Below, piece after piece: positions 1-12,830 of a stretch of DNA of 24,163 bases. The translations under genes and the position numbers were made by a program. The notes under the pieces were generated by a model, which had not been told where the DNA came from, did no database searches, and saw nothing but the letters and a program-made list of their open reading frames with translations. The stretch's first letter is position 1. Each line of letters opens with the position of its first letter. Source of the DNA: SAR202 cluster bacterium (GTDB taxonomy: Bacteria > Chloroflexota > Dehalococcoidia > UBA3495); NCBI GenBank assembly GCA_009392775.1, contig VFFT01000088.1, positions 1 through 24,163 on the forward strand, written 5' to 3'.

Positions 1-873
1 GTTATTGCGGGCGGCGTCGAGAGTATGAGCAATGCAGAATTTTATGTAAACGAATCTCGCTGGGGAGCACGATTTGGCTCAGTACAATTTCATGACCGAC
101 TGGAACGGGCACGTGTAACAATTGCACCTGAAGAACGCTTTGGACCCATACCCGGGGGTATGGTTGAAACTGCCGAAAATCTAGCAAAGAAATATGAGAT
201 ATCAAGAGAAGAGCAAGACGAGTACGCTATAAGAAGCCATCAAAGGGCATCAGAAGCCATGGAATCTGGCAAATTCGACAAAGAAATCGTATCAGTATCA
301 GTTCCTCAGAGAAGAGGTGACCCAATAGATTTCATAACTGACGAAAATCCTCGTCCTGGTACTAACATGGAAAGTCTTGCAAGGCTGCGCCCAGTTATGA
401 AAGATGGATCGGTAACCGCTGGAAATGCAAGCAGCCAGAACGATGCCGCATCAGTTTGCATGGTAGTAGCGGAAGATAAACTCGAGGAACTAGGCTTGGA
501 ACCCATGGGATACCTAAAGGGTTGGGCAGTAACCGGTTGCCACCCTGCATATATGGGCATCGGCCCAGTACCGTCAGTTAACAAACTAATGGATAAGCTT
601 GGCCTAACACTTGATGATATGGACCTAATTGAACTAAACGAGGCATTTGCTTCACAAGTGTTGGCCGTACTTAGAGAATGGAAACTACCCAACGAAGACA
701 TACTCAACGTGAATGGTTCCGGTATTTCACTAGGGCATCCTATAGCTGCGACCGGTGCAAGAATTCTAACTACTCTCCTTCATGAAATGGAAAGGAGGGA
801 CGTGCAATTCGGACTTGAGACAATGTGCGTCGGCGGTGGTCAGGGAGTAGCAGCTATATTTGAACGCGCCTAA
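1..873 (+). CDS. Thiolase family protein (acetyl-CoA acyltransferase type), 5' truncated by window edge
   Basis: Thiolase, which cleaves or condenses beta-ketoacyl-CoA using CoA, probably in cytoplasmic fatty-acid or side-chain beta-oxidation. The reading frame is open from base 1 (V-I-A-G-G-V-E-S-M-S), so the ATG at 25 is internal and the N-terminal part with the nucleophilic cysteine lies outside the window. Visible family motifs are GGVESMS at the left edge, NEAF near base 640, the histidine motif GHPIAATGAR (bases 733-762), and the C-terminal C-V-G-G-G-Q-G loop that carries the second catalytic cysteine. The histidine motif is preceded by NGSG instead of the usual NGGA. The GMC oxidoreductase gene follows 52 bases downstream on the same strand, so the two may be co-transcribed. 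The family is secure; the exact substrate (acetoacetyl-CoA or longer chains) cannot be told. Confidence 0.93.
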   Translation, partial: VIAGGVESMSNAEFYVNESRWGARFGSVQFHDRLERARVTIAPEERFGPIPGGMVETAENLAKKYEISREEQDEYAIRSHQRASEAMESGKFDKEIVSVSVPQRRGDPIDFITDENPRPGTNMESLARLRPVMKDGSVTAGNASSQNDAASVCMVVAEDKLEELGLEPMGYLKGWAVTGCHPAYMGIGPVPSVNKLMDKLGLTLDDMDLIELNEAFASQVLAVLREWKLPNEDILNVNGSGISLGHPIAATGARILTTLLHEMERRDVQFGLETMCVGGGQGVAAIFERA

Positions 874-925: not shown

Positions 926-2521
926 ATGTCGATAAAATCAGATATAGCAGATGTATTAGTCATAGGAGCGGGCGCTTCAGGAGGTGCATTCTGCTGGAGC
1001 TTATCAGAGTCTGGAGCAAAGGTAGTATGCTTAGAACAAGGCGGATGGGTTCCACTAGATGCATTTCCAACTGACAAAGCTGAAAGTGCTATCAACTGGC
1101 AGACCGATTTCAACCCGAACCCAAATCTGCGGCAGTTGTCCGAAGACTACCCCGTAGACGAGACCGAGACACCCATTTCACCACTGATGTATAACGCGGT
1201 AGGGGGAAGCTTAATACACTGGGGATCTCATTTTCCAAGATTTCATCCTTCCGATTTTAAGGTTAAAACCCTTGACGGAGTAGCAGATGACTGGCCTATG
1301 ACCTATCAAGAACTGGAACCTTATTACGACCTTAATGACAATATGCATGGCGTCTCTGGTCTCAAGGGAGACCCCGCTTACCCTCCGAAACCAACTAGAC
1401 CTACCCCTCCGTTAGCATTAGGTCATTCAGGTGAGGTCCTTGCTCGTGGATTCAACAAATTAGGATGGCACTGGTGGCCATCTGATAATGCGATACCATC
1501 GGTAGAATACGATGGCAACAGTCCTGATCACGGCGGCTACTTAAGATCAATGACCAGTTCAGATATAGTTTATTGGCCAAAAGCCTTGAGAAGAGGCGTG
1601 CAACTAAAAACTTATTCTCGGGTGAGGGAGATTCTCGTTGACAAAAGCGGGAAAGCCTCAGGAGCCATCTACTACGATAAAAATGGCGATCTACAGATAC
1701 AAAAGGCCAGAGTGGTAGTTATGGCAGCCAACGGTGTAGGGACAAGTCGTATACTCCTTAATTCGAAATCAGGATTATTTCCAGAAGGATTGGCTAACAG
1801 TACAGGTCTAGTCGGGAAAAACCTGATGCACCACCCGTGCGGGATGGTTGTGGGGTTATTTGAAGAGTCTTTCGAATTTAAGGGAGGACCAAGAGGCAGT
1901 TCCATGTTAAGCCAGGAATTTTATGAAACTGACTCGAACCGTGATTTCGTCAGAGGATATGATCTGCAAGTTTTGGGTAGTGAACAAGCTCCATTAGCAT
2001 CCGCACTAGGAGGACTATTGGGATTACCCGTCGTTTGGGGACAAAATCACCATGACGAGTTCGCCGAAAGGTTCAGGCACACCATAGGTATCTCAATAAT
2101 GACGGAAGACTTGCCTGAAGAGCATAATCAAGTGCGCCTAGATCCAATACACACCGATAGTCACGGGATACCTGGGGCAAAGATCAATTACACTGTCAGT
2201 GACAATACACACCGTATGCTAGACCACGGTCTTGAGCGAGCGTCAGAAGTGCTTAAAGCTGCCGGGGCGACTAAGATTATGTCTGCCCATATTCGTCGGA
2301 ATTGTGGATGGCACTTACTCGGCACAGCTCGCATGGGAGATGATCCTGAAACGTCTGTAGTAGACCGCTGGGGAAGATCACATGATGTATCGAATTTATT
2401 CATTATTGACGGTAGTATATTTACAACTAGTGCGTGCATTAACCCGACCTCTACCATAGAGGCTCTCGCCTTACGAACAGCGGATTATCTAAAAGGTGAG
2501 GGAAGTGCTACTATCGGGTAA
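926..2521 (+). CDS. GMC family FAD-dependent oxidoreductase
   Basis: Glucose-methanol-choline family flavoprotein of 531 residues, a usual family length, that oxidises an alcohol or sugar hydroxyl with FAD. The FAD-binding Rossmann motif G-A-G-A-S-G-G is at residues 14-20, followed by an acidic beta-2 end (LEQGG). The C-terminal GMC domain has the catalytic pair: His463 within W-H-L-L-G-T-A-R-M-G and Asn506 in I-N-P-T-S-T. The second flavin contact L-F-I-I-D-G-S lies between them. There is no signal peptide, so it is probably cytoplasmic, and the layout is closer to gluconate or choline dehydrogenase-like members than to secreted oxidases. The start ATG is preceded by a purine-rich CGGAGC. 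It sits between a thiolase and an NHL protein and probably shares the thiolase transcript. The substrate is unknown. Confidence 0.93.
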   Translation: MSIKSDIADVLVIGAGASGGAFCWSLSESGAKVVCLEQGGWVPLDAFPTDKAESAINWQTDFNPNPNLRQLSEDYPVDETETPISPLMYNAVGGSLIHWGSHFPRFHPSDFKVKTLDGVADDWPMTYQELEPYYDLNDNMHGVSGLKGDPAYPPKPTRPTPPLALGHSGEVLARGFNKLGWHWWPSDNAIPSVEYDGNSPDHGGYLRSMTSSDIVYWPKALRRGVQLKTYSRVREILVDKSGKASGAIYYDKNGDLQIQKARVVVMAANGVGTSRILLNSKSGLFPEGLANSTGLVGKNLMHHPCGMVVGLFEESFEFKGGPRGSSMLSQEFYETDSNRDFVRGYDLQVLGSEQAPLASALGGLLGLPVVWGQNHHDEFAERFRHTIGISIMTEDLPEEHNQVRLDPIHTDSHGIPGAKINYTVSDNTHRMLDHGLERASEVLKAAGATKIMSAHIRRNCGWHLLGTARMGDDPETSVVDRWGRSHDVSNLFIIDGSIFTTSACINPTSTIEALALRTADYLKGEGSATIG

Positions 2522-2638: not shown

Positions 2639-2656
2639 AATTAAAGAGGTATGAAC

Positions 2657-3607
2657 ATGGCAGATATTTATGGAGAGGGTAACTTTCAATATAGGTTCGT
2701 AGAAGACTGGATCAAATTGCCAGACGGTATGAAACTATTAGAATGCCCCGGAGTAGCAGTAGACGCGGAAGATCGAGTATTTATACTAACCCGTGGAGAA
2801 CACCCAATAATGGTGTTTGACAGAGACGGTAATTTTATACGGTCATTCGGTGAAGGGTTATTTAGCGACAATCGAACTCACGGACTGTACTACAGTCCTG
2901 CTGATGGAACATTATTAGCTGCCGACGACGGAATACATACCATACAAAAATTCACTCCTGACGGCGAGAAAGTCATGGAAATCGGCGAACGAAACCACCC
3001 TTCTCCTCGTTGGAGTGGCCAACCTTTTAACCGGCCAACTTCCGCAGCAATCAGACATAGTAATGGCGATATATACATCTCAGACGGGTACGGCAACTCA
3101 AAAATTCACGTTTACACTAGTGATGGCCAATATAAATTCTCATGGGGAGAACCAGGAATCGATGCAGGGCAATTTATCAGACCACATAACATAGTATTCG
3201 ACGACCAAGAACGAGTATATGTAGTAGACCGTGAATGCCACAGGATACAGATATTTGATCCGGAAGGAAACTTCCTTACAATGTGGAGCAATATACATAG
3301 GCCCGATTCGATGGTTCTATGGCAGGATCATGTATATATTGGGGAACTAAACGGTATGGGCGGAGTCGACGATGCGCCTGGCCTAGGGCACAGAGTAAGC
3401 ATATACGACCTCGATGGTAACCGTGTTTGCATGTTCGGTGACAAAGACGAGGGAGAGGGACCAGGTCAATTTATAGCACCTCACGGTATAGCAGTTGACT
3501 CTCATGGAGATATTTATGTAGCCGAAGTCTCCTTCACAATCAGAGGGTCTCATATGGACCCACCTAGAGAACTCCGTAGTTTCTCAAAATACGAACGAGT
3601 CTGGTAA
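2657..3607 (+). CDS. NHL-repeat beta-propeller protein
   Basis: Protein of 316 residues made almost wholly of NHL-type repeats, predicted to fold as a six-bladed beta-propeller related to SMP-30/gluconolactonase-like and peptidylglycine alpha-hydroxyglycine amidating lyase-like proteins. Blades are recognisable by the recurring pattern H/G-(I/L)-A-V-D-x-x-x-x-(I/V)-Y-(I/V)-x-D with F-D-x-(D/E)-G-N-F at the blade ends, spread over the whole length. There is no signal peptide or membrane segment. Two in-frame ATGs exist at 2651 and 2657; AGAGG (2645-2649) is 1 base from the first and 7 from the second, so the second is chosen. Members either bind ligands or act as lyases or lactonases, and the sequence does not decide which. 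It has its own promoter and a strong downstream hairpin, so it is probably a single-gene unit. Confidence 0.88.
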   Translation: MADIYGEGNFQYRFVEDWIKLPDGMKLLECPGVAVDAEDRVFILTRGEHPIMVFDRDGNFIRSFGEGLFSDNRTHGLYYSPADGTLLAADDGIHTIQKFTPDGEKVMEIGERNHPSPRWSGQPFNRPTSAAIRHSNGDIYISDGYGNSKIHVYTSDGQYKFSWGEPGIDAGQFIRPHNIVFDDQERVYVVDRECHRIQIFDPEGNFLTMWSNIHRPDSMVLWQDHVYIGELNGMGGVDDAPGLGHRVSIYDLDGNRVCMFGDKDEGEGPGQFIAPHGIAVDSHGDIYVAEVSFTIRGSHMDPPRELRSFSKYERVW

Positions 3608-3671: not shown

Positions 3672-4736
3672 ATGAGCGAATCTAACCAAGATACTACAAG
3701 CATTCATATAGCTGATCCCATCAACGGTTTTGAAATAGGCTACGAACTTGGGTGGACTGACGGCCTCCCGATTGTACCTCCAACCGATTACAAGGTTTCA
3801 GAATTTTTAGCCCACTCCAACCTAAATGGCGATGAGGTAGTCGGAGAAATACCTGAGCGTCGCCGAGAAATTACGTCCCGTAAAATCGCGGCGAACGCAG
3901 TGATGGCCGGTTGCCTGCCAGAATATTTTCCTGTAGTTCTAGCCGCTAGCAAGGCAATGCTTGAACCCAAGTTCAACCTTGTCGGCCCATCGTCAAGCCT
4001 AGGTGGTGCAGCGATACTCGTGATAGTAAATGGTCCTATAATAAATCAGATTGGGATAAATTCACGAGGAAATCTATTTGGACCAGGGAACAGGGCAAAT
4101 GCTACGATTGGAAGGTCTATACGCCTCGTCCTTATGAACGCCTGCGCAGCCGTACCAGGTCTGTTTGATCGAAGCGTCATCGGACATCCTGGAAAGTTTT
4201 CCTACTGTATCGGTGAGGCACATGCAGAAACACACTGGCCTGGATTACACGAAGAACGCGGTATATCCTCAGATTCTAGCGCCGTCACGGTATTTGCTGC
4301 TGAAGCTCCTAGGCAAGTCAGAGCAGTAGGAGATCCTGAAGCAATACTGTATTCAATAGCTGACGCAGCTTCATCACTAGGGACTTCCTTGTCTACTAGC
4401 GGGTCAGTCTCAGACAAATCAGTGGGTATAAGACAAGGAGAAATAGCTGTGACAATTGCTGGAGACAGCAGCTTATGGTCGCAATGGACTAAGCAACAGG
4501 TCAAAGAAACTCTGTATTCACAAATTAAGCGATCCGTTGCAGATCTGAAGAAAGCTAAAGTCTTCAAGGGAGACCTAGTAGAAGCAGACGAACGTACTTT
4601 TATTCCACTGCTAGAATCTCCCGATGACATTTTGTTACTTTTTGCTGGAGGGGAAGAGGCCAATTTCTCTTCGGTAATCCCCAGCTGGGGACCAAAGGTA
4701 GCATCAACGGCTGCTACGGTACAGATCGAGCTATAA
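3672..4736 (+). CDS. Conserved protein of unknown function, adjacent partner of the UGSC selenoprotein
   Basis: I do not recognise a characterised function. The 354-residue protein is soluble, without signal peptide or obvious membrane helices. It has well-ordered blocks typical of a conserved family: GWTDGLPIVPPT (about 28-39), a segment with AANAVMAGCLPEYFP (about 75-89), a glycine-rich LVIVNGPI, and GNLFGPGNRANATIGR (about 136-151). Two cysteines, in AGC-L-P-E-Y and N-A-C-A, fall inside these blocks. It is followed 39 bases later by the UGSC selenoprotein gene, so the two are likely co-expressed and may form one enzyme. The ATG has no Shine-Dalgarno sequence; a TAGAAT box at 3654-3659 could be a -10 element giving a nearly leaderless mRNA. 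The possible link to Sec-dependent reductases is inference. Confidence 0.8.
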   Translation: MSESNQDTTSIHIADPINGFEIGYELGWTDGLPIVPPTDYKVSEFLAHSNLNGDEVVGEIPERRREITSRKIAANAVMAGCLPEYFPVVLAASKAMLEPKFNLVGPSSSLGGAAILVIVNGPIINQIGINSRGNLFGPGNRANATIGRSIRLVLMNACAAVPGLFDRSVIGHPGKFSYCIGEAHAETHWPGLHEERGISSDSSAVTVFAAEAPRQVRAVGDPEAILYSIADAASSLGTSLSTSGSVSDKSVGIRQGEIAVTIAGDSSLWSQWTKQQVKETLYSQIKRSVADLKKAKVFKGDLVEADERTFIPLLESPDDILLLFAGGEEANFSSVIPSWGPKVASTAATVQIEL

Positions 4737-4775: not shown

Positions 4776-5312
4776 ATGAACACCGTTAACTACACCCTCA
4801 TAAACCCGACAACAACTGCTAAGGTCCCTGATTTTAACGGAGCTCAAAGAATCCCAACCCTCGCTGGAACCACATTAGGTATCATTGACGATAGTAAACG
4901 CAACGCAGACGTTTTATTGGAAGAATTGGCAGAGGTATTGATCAATCGATACGAAATATCTAACGTAATTTGGCACAAAAAACCAAGTGCTTCGAGACCC
5001 GCTGACCCAAAAGAAATCAATAACCTGGCAGCAAAATGCGACTCAGCTATAATAGCCATTGGTGATTGAGGATCCTGTAGCGCGTGCAGTGTGCACGATG
5101 GTATTCATTTAGAAAAAGCAGGGATCCCTTCTGCCACAATTTGTACAGATAGGTTCATAGATACTGCTTCAGGAATGGCCAAAATGTGGGGTGCAGAAAA
5201 CTACCCTACCATATTCACTAAACACCCAATTGAAAACCTGACTAGAGATCAACTGCGTTTACGCATGGAAGAACTCGCGTCCGAGGTAGTGACTATACTC
5301 ACAGGAACCTAA
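4776..5312 (+). CDS. UGSC family selenoprotein; TGA at 5067-5069 read as selenocysteine
   Basis: Two open stretches in the same frame (4776-5066 and 5070-5312) are separated only by TGA at 5067-5069. Reading it as selenocysteine gives a 178-residue protein with Sec98 in the motif U-G-S-C-S-A-C, the signature of the UGSC selenoprotein family known from marine metagenomes. After the motif comes HLEKAGIP and A-T-I-C-T-D, a pattern also seen in the Sec subunit of glycine reductase. The N-terminal part contains L-G-I-I-D-D-S-K-R-N, and the segment before the Sec ends A-I-I-A-I-G-D. A compact hairpin at 5083-5097 fits a bacterial SECIS. The role is probably redox or reductive, acting with the 354-residue protein upstream. 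GGAG at 4759-4762 is 13 bases from the ATG, so the start is less certain. A nonsense mutation is the alternative but would not explain the intact motif. Confidence 0.87.
5067..5097 (+). promoter_or_regulatory. Candidate bacterial SECIS element (selenocysteine insertion)
   Basis: Directly after the in-frame TGA, CGTGCA (5083-5088) pairs perfectly with TGCACG (5092-5097) around a three-base loop GTG. The loop begins with G then U, as in known bacterial elements, and lies 20 bases from the TGA, inside the usual range for SelB-dependent hairpins. The lower stem is weak, with only isolated pairs. The hairpin is part of the coding sequence (residues after Sec98). Confidence 0.7.
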
Positions 5313-8717: not shown

Positions 8718-9803
8718 CTATAATTTCAAATCAGCAAGATTTGGCATTACATCTTCTGATAAATATTGCATAGATTTAAGCCACTTATCGTAAGGATTCC
8801 ACTCATGCCCCATGGCAAGTAGAACCCCAAATCCTCCAGTATCCCTAAAAAGCTGTCTGAGTTGCTCAGTAACGTCATCGATACTACCTACTATCCAGAC
8901 ATTATCCAGTAAATATTCCGGAGTCACATCGGAATCAGCAATTTCATTATTCCCTTTAAACAAACTCAGTGAATCCATATAAGACATTAACGGGATGAAA
9001 TAATCCTGAAAATCACGACCAATAGTGCCCTCCAAGACTTCCTCCCGTGCCTGTGCAGTTGTGTCAGCGACATAAATCTCTTTCGCGATACGCCATGTTG
9101 AACGGTTTGCCTTTTTGCCTGCTAATGCAGCTCCCTTTTCTACGGCATCCCAATGACTACTTAGTACTTCCGACGGGACCAAATTTATACTGAGAGGCAA
9201 CCATCCCTTCTCTCCTGCCATAACCAGTGTGTCAGAGTTGGGAGACACACCCGCCACCCCAATAGGTGGATGTGGTTTTTGATACGGTTTCATATGAAAC
9301 TCTAGCCCGATCTCTGGCACCGGCCGAGGGATGGCAAATTCCCAAGCTTCATGTTTGTACTGACCAGGAGCAGGATCCTCCCACATCCGTAGGATTAGCT
9401 CAATTGCATCTCGCGACATACCACGATGAAACCCAGTAGAAGGATCAAATCCAAACACTTCGAAATCTCCAGGAAACCCCCCAGACCCTACTCCCCAATG
9501 GAAGCGGCCTTTAGCTAAATTATCCAACTGTGCAATCCGATGTGCGATCATAAACGGATCATGATTCGGCATACATGTTACGCCAGTACCAAAAACAATG
9601 TTCTTAGTTCGTGATAAGGCAGCTGCAATGAATTGATCCGGAGCAGGAATATTTTCCCAGACGGTAGTGAAATGCTCTCCTATCCAGGCTTCTTTATATC
9701 CTAATTTATCGAGACATTCCATTTGATGCAGATCAGCTTCCATGGTATCTGCTGGATCTGAACCAGGAGGATGCAGCGGCATTGTAAAATATCCGACTTC
9801 CAT
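8718..9803 (-). CDS. Luciferase-like (LLM class) flavin-dependent oxidoreductase
   Basis: TIM-barrel flavin-dependent monooxygenase of the bacterial luciferase-like superfamily, 361 residues. Visible marks are E-A-W-I-G-E-H-F at about 37-44, T-G-V-T-C-M-P-N-H-D-P around 73-83, an L-D-N-L-A-K-G-R-F strand, G-V-G-S-G-G-F-P-G-D, and P-H-P-P-I-G-V-A-G-V-S-P-N in the barrel. Such enzymes use FMNH2 (or F420) with oxygen to oxidise organic substrates; the cofactor here cannot be read from sequence. GGGAG with 5-base spacing precedes the ATG. It has its own promoter and is divergent from a small orphan gene. Marine SAR202-type genomes carry many paralogues, and a second distant one lies at 11609-12784. 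Confidence 0.93.
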   Translation of the reverse strand: MEVGYFTMPLHPPGSDPADTMEADLHQMECLDKLGYKEAWIGEHFTTVWENIPAPDQFIAAALSRTKNIVFGTGVTCMPNHDPFMIAHRIAQLDNLAKGRFHWGVGSGGFPGDFEVFGFDPSTGFHRGMSRDAIELILRMWEDPAPGQYKHEAWEFAIPRPVPEIGLEFHMKPYQKPHPPIGVAGVSPNSDTLVMAGEKGWLPLSINLVPSEVLSSHWDAVEKGAALAGKKANRSTWRIAKEIYVADTTAQAREEVLEGTIGRDFQDYFIPLMSYMDSLSLFKGNNEIADSDVTPEYLLDNVWIVGSIDDVTEQLRQLFRDTGGFGVLLAMGHEWNPYDKWLKSMQYLSEDVMPNLADLKL

Positions 9804-11608: not shown

Positions 11609-12784
11609 CTAGTCATCTGCAGGAATAGTCACTGAACCTATCTCTGCCCCAGAAAACGATGGCATTACTTCCTCAGCGAATATACTGAGTTGTTGCTTGA
11701 ATTCTGACCAGGGCATGCCTTCTGGCCACTGGAACACTACATCTTCTAACCCAGGATATTTCTCCTCTATACCTTTCAGATAAGACACAAACTCTTCAGA
11801 TGAACCGCAGAACCATGCCTTCTGCTCTACTCCATCCTCAACACGTGGAGTTCTAGCGGGAGCTCCTGGAGTTCCCCAAGGTCTGCCTTCCTCATCCGTA
11901 TATCGCACATATCCAAATGGAGCAAACCACTTATATCGCTCGTCGTGGTACGGCCTCACTTTTTCCATTGCCTCAGTTTTACTGTCAGCGATGTAAAAAC
12001 CTACTCCAAACGCGATATTCTCCCCTAAAGCCACGTTCTTACCAGCATTTTTATATGCGGTCTGGTAATTACTAATCATTTCATCAGCCATTACCTCACC
12101 AGTCAGAGCAACCATGCCCTTTATACCGTGCTGAGCCATAAATTCGATCGATCTACCACTTGTAATGGGTTGCCATATCTCCACAGGGAGATTCACGGGC
12201 CTAGGGACTAATGTTACATCAGTCATTTCGTACCCTCGGTAAGGCACTTCAGCAGGAATAGTATGTCTAGGACCTTTATGGCTAAAAGACTCCTCGTTAA
12301 AAGCCTTTAAGATGATCTCCATGTTTTCTTCAAAGACTGCCCTATTTGCATCTTGATCAATCAGCGGGGCACCCATGGTCTCTACTTCCCTTGACTGATA
12401 CCCGCGGCCGACGCCAAATATCAACCTACCTCTAGTCATCACGTCTGCCATAGCAAAATCTTCTGCCAGACGTATAGGATGCCACATAGGCACAATATTA
12501 AAACCCGCACCGAACTTCAACCTCTTGGTAATTCCTGCTAAATGAACTCCTAAAAGAGTCAGGTTAGGAAAGACTTCATATCCTTCTCGTTGGAAATGAT
12601 GTTCAGCAGCCCAGAGACAATAAAAGCCCAAATCATCCATATGCTTCGCCAATTCCTCGGCATGATAGTAAGGCTCGATTAAGGTTTCATTTGGATAGCG
12701 TCGATCATTCGCTGGCGTAGCATCTGCTCCTACGTCCTCAAAATCTATTTGTCCTACATACAACACTGAAAATCGTTTAATCAT
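11609..12784 (-). CDS. Luciferase-like (LLM class) flavin-dependent oxidoreductase, second copy
   Basis: A second luciferase-like TIM-barrel monooxygenase, about 391 residues, from a different branch than the copy at 8718-9803. Landmarks are W-A-A-E-H-H-F (about 41-47), L-K-F-G-A-G-F-N-I-V-P-M-W-H-P, D-V-M-T-R-G-R-L, G-V-G-R-G-Y-Q-S-R-E, and W-F-C-G-S-S-E-E near the C terminus. The E-H-H-F and G-R-G-Y-Q motifs are typical of alkanal/limonene-type members. In-frame ATGs are at 12793 and 12784; GAGGGA abuts the first and is 9 bases from the second, so 12784 is chosen. It has an extended -10 promoter and a clear terminator, so it is transcribed alone. The substrate and whether the cofactor is FMN or F420 are unknown. 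Confidence 0.92.
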   Translation of the reverse strand: MIKRFSVLYVGQIDFEDVGADATPANDRRYPNETLIEPYYHAEELAKHMDDLGFYCLWAAEHHFQREGYEVFPNLTLLGVHLAGITKRLKFGAGFNIVPMWHPIRLAEDFAMADVMTRGRLIFGVGRGYQSREVETMGAPLIDQDANRAVFEENMEIILKAFNEESFSHKGPRHTIPAEVPYRGYEMTDVTLVPRPVNLPVEIWQPITSGRSIEFMAQHGIKGMVALTGEVMADEMISNYQTAYKNAGKNVALGENIAFGVGFYIADSKTEAMEKVRPYHDERYKWFAPFGYVRYTDEEGRPWGTPGAPARTPRVEDGVEQKAWFCGSSEEFVSYLKGIEEKYPGLEDVVFQWPEGMPWSEFKQQLSIFAEEVMPSFSGAEIGSVTIPADD

Positions 12785-12830
12785 AGATACCATTCCCTCA
12801 TTGGATAGATAAATATATAGAAGATGACTT

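What the first reader, a model, noticed from the sequence alone, without database searches (positions are those of the whole stretch)
4776..5312. UGSC selenoprotein encoded across an in-frame TGA
Two same-frame open stretches (97 residues before and about 80 after) are split only by TGA at 5067-5069, and the bases after it spell G-S-C-S-A-C, so recoding gives U-G-S-C exactly. An ordinary annotation would report two truncated hypotheticals or a pseudogene. Seen: the frame continuity and the motif. Known: UGSC proteins form a selenoprotein family first noted in marine metagenomes. Inferred: the host uses selenocysteine, so selA, selB, selC and selD should be elsewhere in the genome.
Basis: partly seen in the sequence, partly recalled or inferred. 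Interest (0 to 1): 0.88.

Follow-up and report, generated by a model that had tools for sequence, protein, structure and literature searches.

The report
Selenoprotein read through a stop codon
A gene from an ocean bacterium is cut in two by a stop codon that is almost certainly read as the selenium amino acid selenocysteine, which places it in a known but poorly understood family; most of its relatives sit beside, or are fused to, a second unnamed protein, so the two probably form one selenium enzyme.

Summary
Confirmed: one frame, 4776-5312, split only by TGA at 5067-5069, encodes 178 residues with U98 and C101. The reading is right: the joined protein passes Pfam UGSC (186.8 bits, cut-off 25) and NCBIfam UGSC_fam (156.3, cut-off 125). 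TGA sits at residue 98 in the window and all 53 related loci. A hairpin at bases 14-28 after the TGA has frozen synonymous codons and covaries. Most relatives examined carry SelA, SelB, SelD and tRNA-Sec; the host genome is not held. The family is already named, so this is a new member of a known kind. Beyond the finding: UGSC is paired with a 354-residue protein without a Pfam or NCBIfam family, fused or within 1.5 kb in 119 of 126 cases, with equal copy numbers in five genomes tested. Its selenium domain is homologous to that of GrdB/PrdB reductases; the predicted fold is Rossmann-like, not thioredoxin-like as proposed in print. Thioredoxin reductase genes lie beside some copies. I infer a thioredoxin-fed two-part reductase; substrate unknown.

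The parts
4776..5312 (+). UGSC-family selenoprotein gene, 178 aa, Sec at residue 98, Cys at 101
5067..5069 (+). in-frame TGA, Sec codon
   Evidence: TGA at this residue in 54 of 54; Cys codon in 7 of 9 distant homologues, TGA in 2
5083..5097 (+). SECIS-like hairpin: stem 5083-5087 / 5093-5097, loop 5088-5092 (AGTGT, G second)
   Evidence: 92.1% of cells paired, 73 cells with changes on both sides, 0 of 500 shuffles as high for these; no synonymous variation in these codons in 53 sequences; folding of the window sequence alone is not significant
3672..4736 (+). partner gene, 354 aa, no Pfam or NCBIfam family; 39 bases before the UGSC start codon
   Evidence: adjacency or fusion; copy number
2651..3607 (+). 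NHL-repeat beta-propeller protein, same strand, probably same operon
   Evidence: its cluster occurs in 25 of 64 loci, window included
926..2521 (+). GMC-type FAD oxidoreductase, same strand
   Evidence: its cluster in 32 of 64 loci
1..873 (+). acyl-CoA thiolase, cut by the window edge, same strand
   Evidence: its cluster in 24 of 64 loci

Best explanation
The gene makes a full-length UGSC selenoprotein. The ribosome inserts selenocysteine at UGA 5067 under the direction of a bacterial-type SECIS hairpin just downstream (shown by comparison, not by experiment). The protein is the selenium-bearing subunit of a two-part enzyme with the 354-residue protein encoded just upstream (strongly supported by context). 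Its domain is homologous to the Sec-bearing C-terminal domain of glycine and D-proline reductase (GrdB/PrdB), with Sec at the same place (supported). Inferred: the partner binds the substrate, the selenolate of U98 attacks it or takes part in its reductive cleavage, C101 resolves the selenium as a Se-S bond, and thioredoxin with thioredoxin reductase re-reduces the pair. The many paralogues, most with their own partner, would be enzymes for different organic substrates in catabolic operons; here the operon also holds a thiolase and a GMC oxidoreductase. The substrate is unknown.
For: Family scores. TGA conserved in 54 of 54, in 111 of 111 UGSC matches in 20 genomes and in 75 of 78 matches in 301 genomes of the phylum. 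Hairpin covariation and frozen codons. Over the family cut-off: SelB 19 of 20, SelA 18 of 20, SelD 20 of 20 genomes, against 2, 1 and 2 of 14 control genomes; tRNA-Sec at 62 bits or more in 16 of 20. Partner: of 126 UGSC domains 20 are fused to it in one frame, 76 lie within 300 bases, 23 within 300-1500; equal counts of both genes in the five of 20 genomes tested, 39 and 39, of which by their coordinates 36 pairs lie within 1.1 kb; adjacent in 10 of 10 Methylomirabilota loci fetched. GrdB/PrdB homology: hhalign probability 93%, P 3.3e-7, Sec on Sec, two controls 0.3-0.4%; weak NCBIfam GrdB hits in 25 of 26 members. Thioredoxin reductase directly beside UGSC/partner in six loci of three phyla, and 8.9 kb off in Paracoccus.
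Against: No protein evidence. Host genome not held. The partner's fold and chemistry are unresolved, and it is not detectably related to GrdE. A TrxB match was found in only 3 of 124 loci scanned from the genome collections (window included, where there is none) and in 4 of 9 named-plasmid loci. Of 126 UGSC domains, 6 have no partner in the stretch held (3 of them close to a contig edge) and one has it 5.2 kb away; in G005 two UGSCs and two partners lie far apart. Among nine G001 paralogues UGSC and partner distances are not correlated (r 0.10). One homologue has Arg at the Sec position. The window hairpin alone folds no better than shuffled sequence, and one of five covariation measures (pairs with a change on both sides, 4 against 3.6) is not above the shuffles. 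GrdB homology is weaker with narrower profiles (6.7-77.8%).
Confidence: 0.65

Rival explanations
1. The TGA is a real stop: the gene is a pseudogene or holds a sequencing error, and the window makes a 97-residue protein.
For: 119 of the 120 listed database proteins (of 295 found) are truncated at 97-103 aa; the cluster of P0002 holds 38 sequences.
Against: TGA at the same residue in 54 of 54, purifying selection after it (0.066 nonsynonymous, 0.456 synonymous), whole-length family match, covarying hairpin.
Confidence: 0.02
2. UGA is read in this lineage as another amino acid (for example Trp or Gly) by a changed genetic code.
For: The frame is open across TGA.
Against: Of the six other single-TGA stretches listed, five are extensions of listed ORFs, some of which end in TGA, and one lies opposite a longer ORF; distant homologues have Cys at the site; relatives carry the Sec machinery.
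Confidence: 0.01
3. UGSC is a stand-alone thiol oxidoreductase with a thioredoxin-like fold, and the partner is linked for another reason.
For: UxxC motif; [quoted passage not shown]
Against: Confident predicted model (mean pLDDT 89.3) whose matches shown are flavodoxin-, receiver- and lumazine-synthase-like folds; profile homology to GrdB/PrdB; pairing and fusion with the partner.
Confidence: 0.12
4. UGSC-partner is the selenium site of a non-redox enzyme (for example a lyase or transferase using the selenolate as nucleophile), and Trx only keeps it reduced.
For: The partner has invariant polar residues (N75, N130, N143, R148, E182, H193 in the 17 members of A6); Foldseek's top hits for it are class I fumarases and cyclic amide hydrolases.
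Against: Those structural hits have TM of about 0.2-0.3 and are not trustworthy; C101 is kept in all 12 proteins of A5, which suits a redox cycle.
Confidence: 0.15

Closest known systems
UGSC family (seleno)protein, NCBIfam NF041046 / Pfam PF24696
   Same: Match over both curated cut-offs, UGSC motif, UGA at the motif; family reported from marine samples (passages).
   Different: Nothing essential: a new member. The partner gene and the GrdB relation are not in the passages of the papers that I read.
Glycine reductase selenoprotein B (GrdB, TIGR01917) and D-proline reductase PrdB
   Same: Sec at the same place in the domain and an E-AGIP stretch after it; two-gene organisation in which a companion precedes the Sec subunit (GrdE-GrdB in G015 and G006); link to thioredoxin (named for GrdA in PMC13188914, passage).
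   Different: Far below the GrdB cut-off (22.6 of 602.2 bits); only the C-terminal part of GrdB is matched; partner not detectably related to GrdE or GrdB; no PF09338 match in G001 and G002, which hold 10 and 6 UGSC; lineages described as aerobic (recalled).
PrdB-like UPxC selenoproteins in the same genomes
   Same: Same Sec domain; TGA at that place in 13 of 13 read through.
   Different: UPxC motif, different flanking parts; not tested for a partner.

Membership tests
UGSC (PF24696 / NF041046) | score over the curated cut-off along the whole length | tested here: met
   186.8 against 25 and 156.3 against 125 bits
UGSC (PF24696 / NF041046) | UGSC motif with Sec or Cys first | tested here: met
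   U98-G-S-C101; Sec/Cys at 98 and C101 in all 12 of A5
bacterial selenoprotein gene | SECIS hairpin soon after UGA with G among the first two loop bases (definition recalled) | tested here: met
   loop G is the 20th base after the UGA; all five pairs in 83 of 104 distinct sequences, covariation
bacterial selenoprotein gene | SelA, SelB, SelD and tRNA-Sec in the host | tested here: inconclusive
   present in 18, 19, 20 and 16 of 20 relatives; host genome not held
bacterial selenoprotein gene | selenium in the protein | not testable with these tools
   needs mass spectrometry or 75Se labelling
GrdB (TIGR01917) | score over the curated cut-off | tested here: not met
   22.6 of 602.2 bits
GrdB/PrdB superfamily, Sec domain only | profile homology with Sec aligned to Sec | tested here: met
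   hhalign 93.0% against GrdB and PrdB-like together, 77.8% against two GrdB, 69.0% against PrdB-like alone; controls 0.3-0.4%
GrdB complex | GrdE (PF09338) companion | tested here: not met
   no PF09338 hit in any of 24 partners; partner against two GrdE 0.1-0.4%; G001 and G002 lack PF09338 matches
thioredoxin-like fold | Trx fold | tested here: inconclusive
   model is Rossmann-like and no thioredoxin is among the rows shown, but a missing match does not exclude a fold

The most novel reading that the evidence does not exclude
UGSC and its unnamed partner form a new class of thioredoxin-coupled two-part selenoenzyme, built on the Sec domain of glycine/proline reductase but with an unrelated substrate subunit. 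It has been multiplied to as many as about ten paralogous pairs per genome in SAR202-type Chloroflexota and in Methylomirabilota, where it would reductively cleave diverse recalcitrant organic compounds.
Probability: 0.45. Interest if true: 0.78.

Novelty: new member of a known kind. Interest (0 to 1): 0.5.

Why it matters
UGSC is one of the commonest marine selenoprotein families (255 sequences in GOS, PMC2398784, table passage; 8.2% of selenoprotein genes, PMC9402790, passage), yet the papers whose passages I read give it no function. A regular partner, fusions, a thioredoxin link and homology to GrdB/PrdB turn it into a testable enzyme: one can now choose what to co-express and which reductant to try. 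Databases hold these genes truncated, so a large selenium-dependent capacity in uncultured marine and other bacteria may be hidden.

Tried and rejected
Pseudogene, sequencing error and changed genetic code: rejected (see rivals). Folding the window hairpin alone gave z from -1.44 to 0.03 and says nothing; the covariation does. Rfam on the window and on the Paracoccus segment L141, and ARAGORN on both, found no gene, so selC of Paracoccus lies elsewhere or was missed. Partner families: nothing consistent in Pfam (of 24 members at most 2 match any one family, best E 0.015) or NCBIfam (none of 17), and no solved structure; UGSC has no solved relative either (one chance-level match). The partner model is of middling quality (mean pLDDT 79.3); its hits (fumarase, cyclic amide hydrolase, tubulin) were set aside as unreliable. 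Partner = GrdE: the first test was flawed because my length filter took a GrdB frame from L159; repeated properly with two GrdE sequences (54% identical to each other) it gives 0.1-0.4%. Partner as a redox protein through its conserved cysteines: C81 and C179 are lost in some members, so not adopted. Mirror comparison of UGSC and partner distances: r 0.93 over 115 pairs, but this follows from shared descent; within nine G001 paralogues r 0.10 (604 of 2000 permutations as high), so it gives no support. An early count of 23 'same open frame' cases was inflated because TGA stops were read through; one search leaves 20 fusions, 19 with one TGA and one (in L131) with none.

Rows dropped or doubled: from 128 UGSC domain hits two loci were duplicates (L082, L083), leaving 126 for adjacency; one gene in L122 counts as two pieces. 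The hairpin count used 104 distinct stretches, after dropping identical rows, those under 45 bases or with N, and the two not reading TGA. Of the 78 matches four were not fetched (G211:C187, G261:C520, G085:C222, G197:C145). Codon variation left out L052. One search lists only the best part of its matches; all rows shown have one TGA, the rest were not seen. Copy numbers of the partner were counted in 5 of the 20 genomes, chosen by me. The clusters contain L083, which overlaps L001. Of 17 plasmid hits I fetched 9 records (10 regions, one record twice); whether Acidovorax (L134) has a partner I did not check. Of 24 GRDB matches 15 were read. One protein search, two genome searches and two paper searches were not used.

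Full report
Observation. The + strand frame 4776-5312 is open from ATG to TAA except for TGA at 5067-5069. Read as U it gives 178 residues with I-A-I-G-D-U-G-S-C-S-A-C around the site. The joined protein matches Pfam PF24696 UGSC at 186.8 bits (residues 8-176) and NCBIfam NF041046 at 156.3 bits, both over the cut-off. No whole genome is held for the window. Of 53 related loci, 52 are titled Chloroflexi, Chloroflexota, Dehalococcoidia or SAR202 MAGs and one Methylomirabilota; the closest, L001, is 88-89% identical.

Is the TGA a Sec codon? In the window and all 53 loci the codon at residue 98 is TGA, including the Methylomirabilota locus at 38-39% identity. In 20 genomes of such loci all 111 UGSC matches contain TGA; in 301 genomes of the phylum 32 hold UGSC and 75 of 78 matches contain TGA. 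Distant homologues on named plasmids have a Cys codon there in seven of nine and TGA in two. After the TGA the window and L001 differ at 0.066 of nonsynonymous and 0.456 of synonymous sites, so the second half is translated. Against: one metagenome protein (P0003) has Arg at the site, and one diverged copy in L131 reads ACC there.

SECIS. In 53 sequences (window and 52 loci, L052 left out) the codons +5 to +9 (GCG TGC AGT GTG CAC) show no synonymous variation; elsewhere between codons -20 and +29 only the TGA and the -1 codon are fixed. These codons form a stem of five pairs with a five-base loop, positions 17-31 counted from the T of TGA (window 5083-5097). Among 104 distinct sequences including paralogues, 83 form all five pairs. 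The pair count gives 92.1% of cells paired against 72.8% in shuffles, 73 cells changed on both sides against 18.0 and covariation 0.449 against 0.131, each with 0 of 500 shuffles as high; further pair types 12 against 8.3 (1 of 500); pairs with a change on both sides 4 against 3.6 (313 of 500, not informative). Sliding the partner by 1-3 columns gives lower pairing and covariation each time. Stems such as CGTGC/GCACG, CGTGG/CCACG, CGGCC/GGCCG, CCCGC/GCGGG and CGAGC/GCTCG keep pairing while the encoded residues change. A subgroup of nine with CGGCG GTCGC CGTGC does not form all five pairs in these columns and was counted as it stands. Ten Methylomirabilota loci all carry CGGGC-AGTGT-GCTCG. That bacterial SECIS elements have a G at the start of the loop is recalled.

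Machinery. Over the family cut-off: SelB in 19 of 20 relatives, SelA 18 of 20, SelD 20 of 20, with an in-frame TGA in the best match of 19; in 14 control genomes these pass in 2, 1 and 2. The tRNA-Sec model passes its cut-off in 19 of 20 but also in 5 of 14 controls, so I count only matches of 62 bits or more: 16 of 20; in the other four the best matches (44-49 bits) are probably ordinary tRNAs. G001, the genome of L001, has all four.

The partner. The gene at 3672-4736 (354 aa) lies 39 bases before the UGSC start. It has no Pfam or NCBIfam family but thousands of homologues (7747 of 8000 scored candidates). Of 126 UGSC domains, 20 are fused to a partner in one reading frame with UGSC first (many of one subfamily), 76 have it within 300 bases, 23 within 300-1500, one at 5.2 kb, and six none in the stretch held, three of these close to a contig edge. 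In the five of 20 genomes in which I counted both, the numbers are equal: 10/10, 6/6, 8/8, 8/8 and 7/7. By their coordinates 36 of these 39 pairs lie within 1.1 kb, one at 5.2 kb, and in G005 two UGSCs and two partners lie apart. All ten Methylomirabilota loci fetched have it directly upstream. The same pairing is seen in Natrinema (two species), Halalkalicoccus, Halorientalis, Arthrobacter, Roseovarius and Paracoccus, so it spans Bacteria and Archaea. A GOS paper reports UGSC fused to a domain called Unknown_1 (PMC2398784, passage); whether that is this partner I could not check, as supplements were not available.

Electron donor. Thioredoxin reductase genes lie directly by UGSC/partner in Arthrobacter (with trxA), Roseovarius and Neorhizobium (a match in two pieces) and in three Chloroflexota loci (L065, L124, L126), and 8.9 kb off, beside selA, in Paracoccus. 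In L065 it begins about ten bases after the UGSC match. That is 3 of 124 loci scanned from the genome collections, window included, and 4 of 9 named-plasmid loci; stretch lengths differ, and no background rate was computed. TIGR01292 is over its cut-off in four of the seven and below it in L124, L126 and L140.

Setting. In the window the order thiolase - GMC oxidoreductase - NHL protein - partner - UGSC on one strand is kept in L001. The first three clusters recur in 24, 32 and 25 of 64 loci (single-linkage clusters and one overlapping locus, so counts are rough). This suggests a catabolic operon. Methylomirabilota hold UGSC in 72 of 95 genomes, up to 12 copies. A 2026 review mentions a Methylomirabilota MAG with 63 selenoprotein genes (PMC13188914, passage), so the selenium richness of that phylum is already in print.

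Literature. The UGSC family is known; I saw passages of PMC2398784, PMC13188914, PMC7539508, PMC9402790, PMC9312934 and PMC5029168 and read no paper in full. Searches: UGSC with selenoprotein (8 papers), with thioredoxin reductase (6), with glycine reductase (5); SAR202 with selenocysteine (2), with selenoprotein (0); Chloroflexi with selenoprotein and SECIS (6); Rokubacteria with selenoprotein (1); Methylomirabilota with selenocysteine (1). No title, abstract start or passage that I saw states the partner gene or the GrdB relation; the papers may hold more, and most subscription papers are not held.

Verdict. The gene is a new member of a known selenoprotein family. The pairing with an unnamed partner and the GrdB/PrdB relation are the parts of most interest. 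The mechanism as a thioredoxin-fed reductase is inference.

Noticed in passing
L141 (CP038202.1, 1315054-1336942): On Paracoccus ferrooxidans plasmid pFER4 about 21 kb with trxB, selA, a cysteine desulfurase, DsrE, TusA, UGSC (split by TGA), partner and selB lies between two inverted ISPme2 copies. About 20 kb of it is found at 98-99% identity in two P. versutus records, where the match stops short of the ISPme2 copies. It looks like a movable selenocysteine cassette; no tRNA-Sec was found in it.
   Followed up: partly
L144-L155, L157: Chloroflexota genomes with UGSC also hold GrdB-like proteins with a UPxC motif, whose frames run on across a TGA at the Sec place (13 of 13 read).
   Followed up: partly
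phylum of G013 (L052, titled Methylomirabilota): UGSC in 72 of 95 genomes, up to 12 copies, one TGA in every row shown.
   Followed up: partly
L140 (CP090555.1, about 134658-137280): Neorhizobium galegae has Cys instead of Sec in a UGSC homologue that runs on into partner-like sequence, beside a thioredoxin reductase match split over two pieces.
   Followed up: no
L132, L133: A gene annotated phosphosulfolactate synthase lies near the Cys-type UGSC in both Natrinema zhouii and Arthrobacter, a possible hint at the substrate.
   Followed up: no
window 8718-9803 and 11609-12793: Two luciferase-like monooxygenases near the UGSC operon, a gene type often said to be expanded in SAR202 (recalled).
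   Followed up: no
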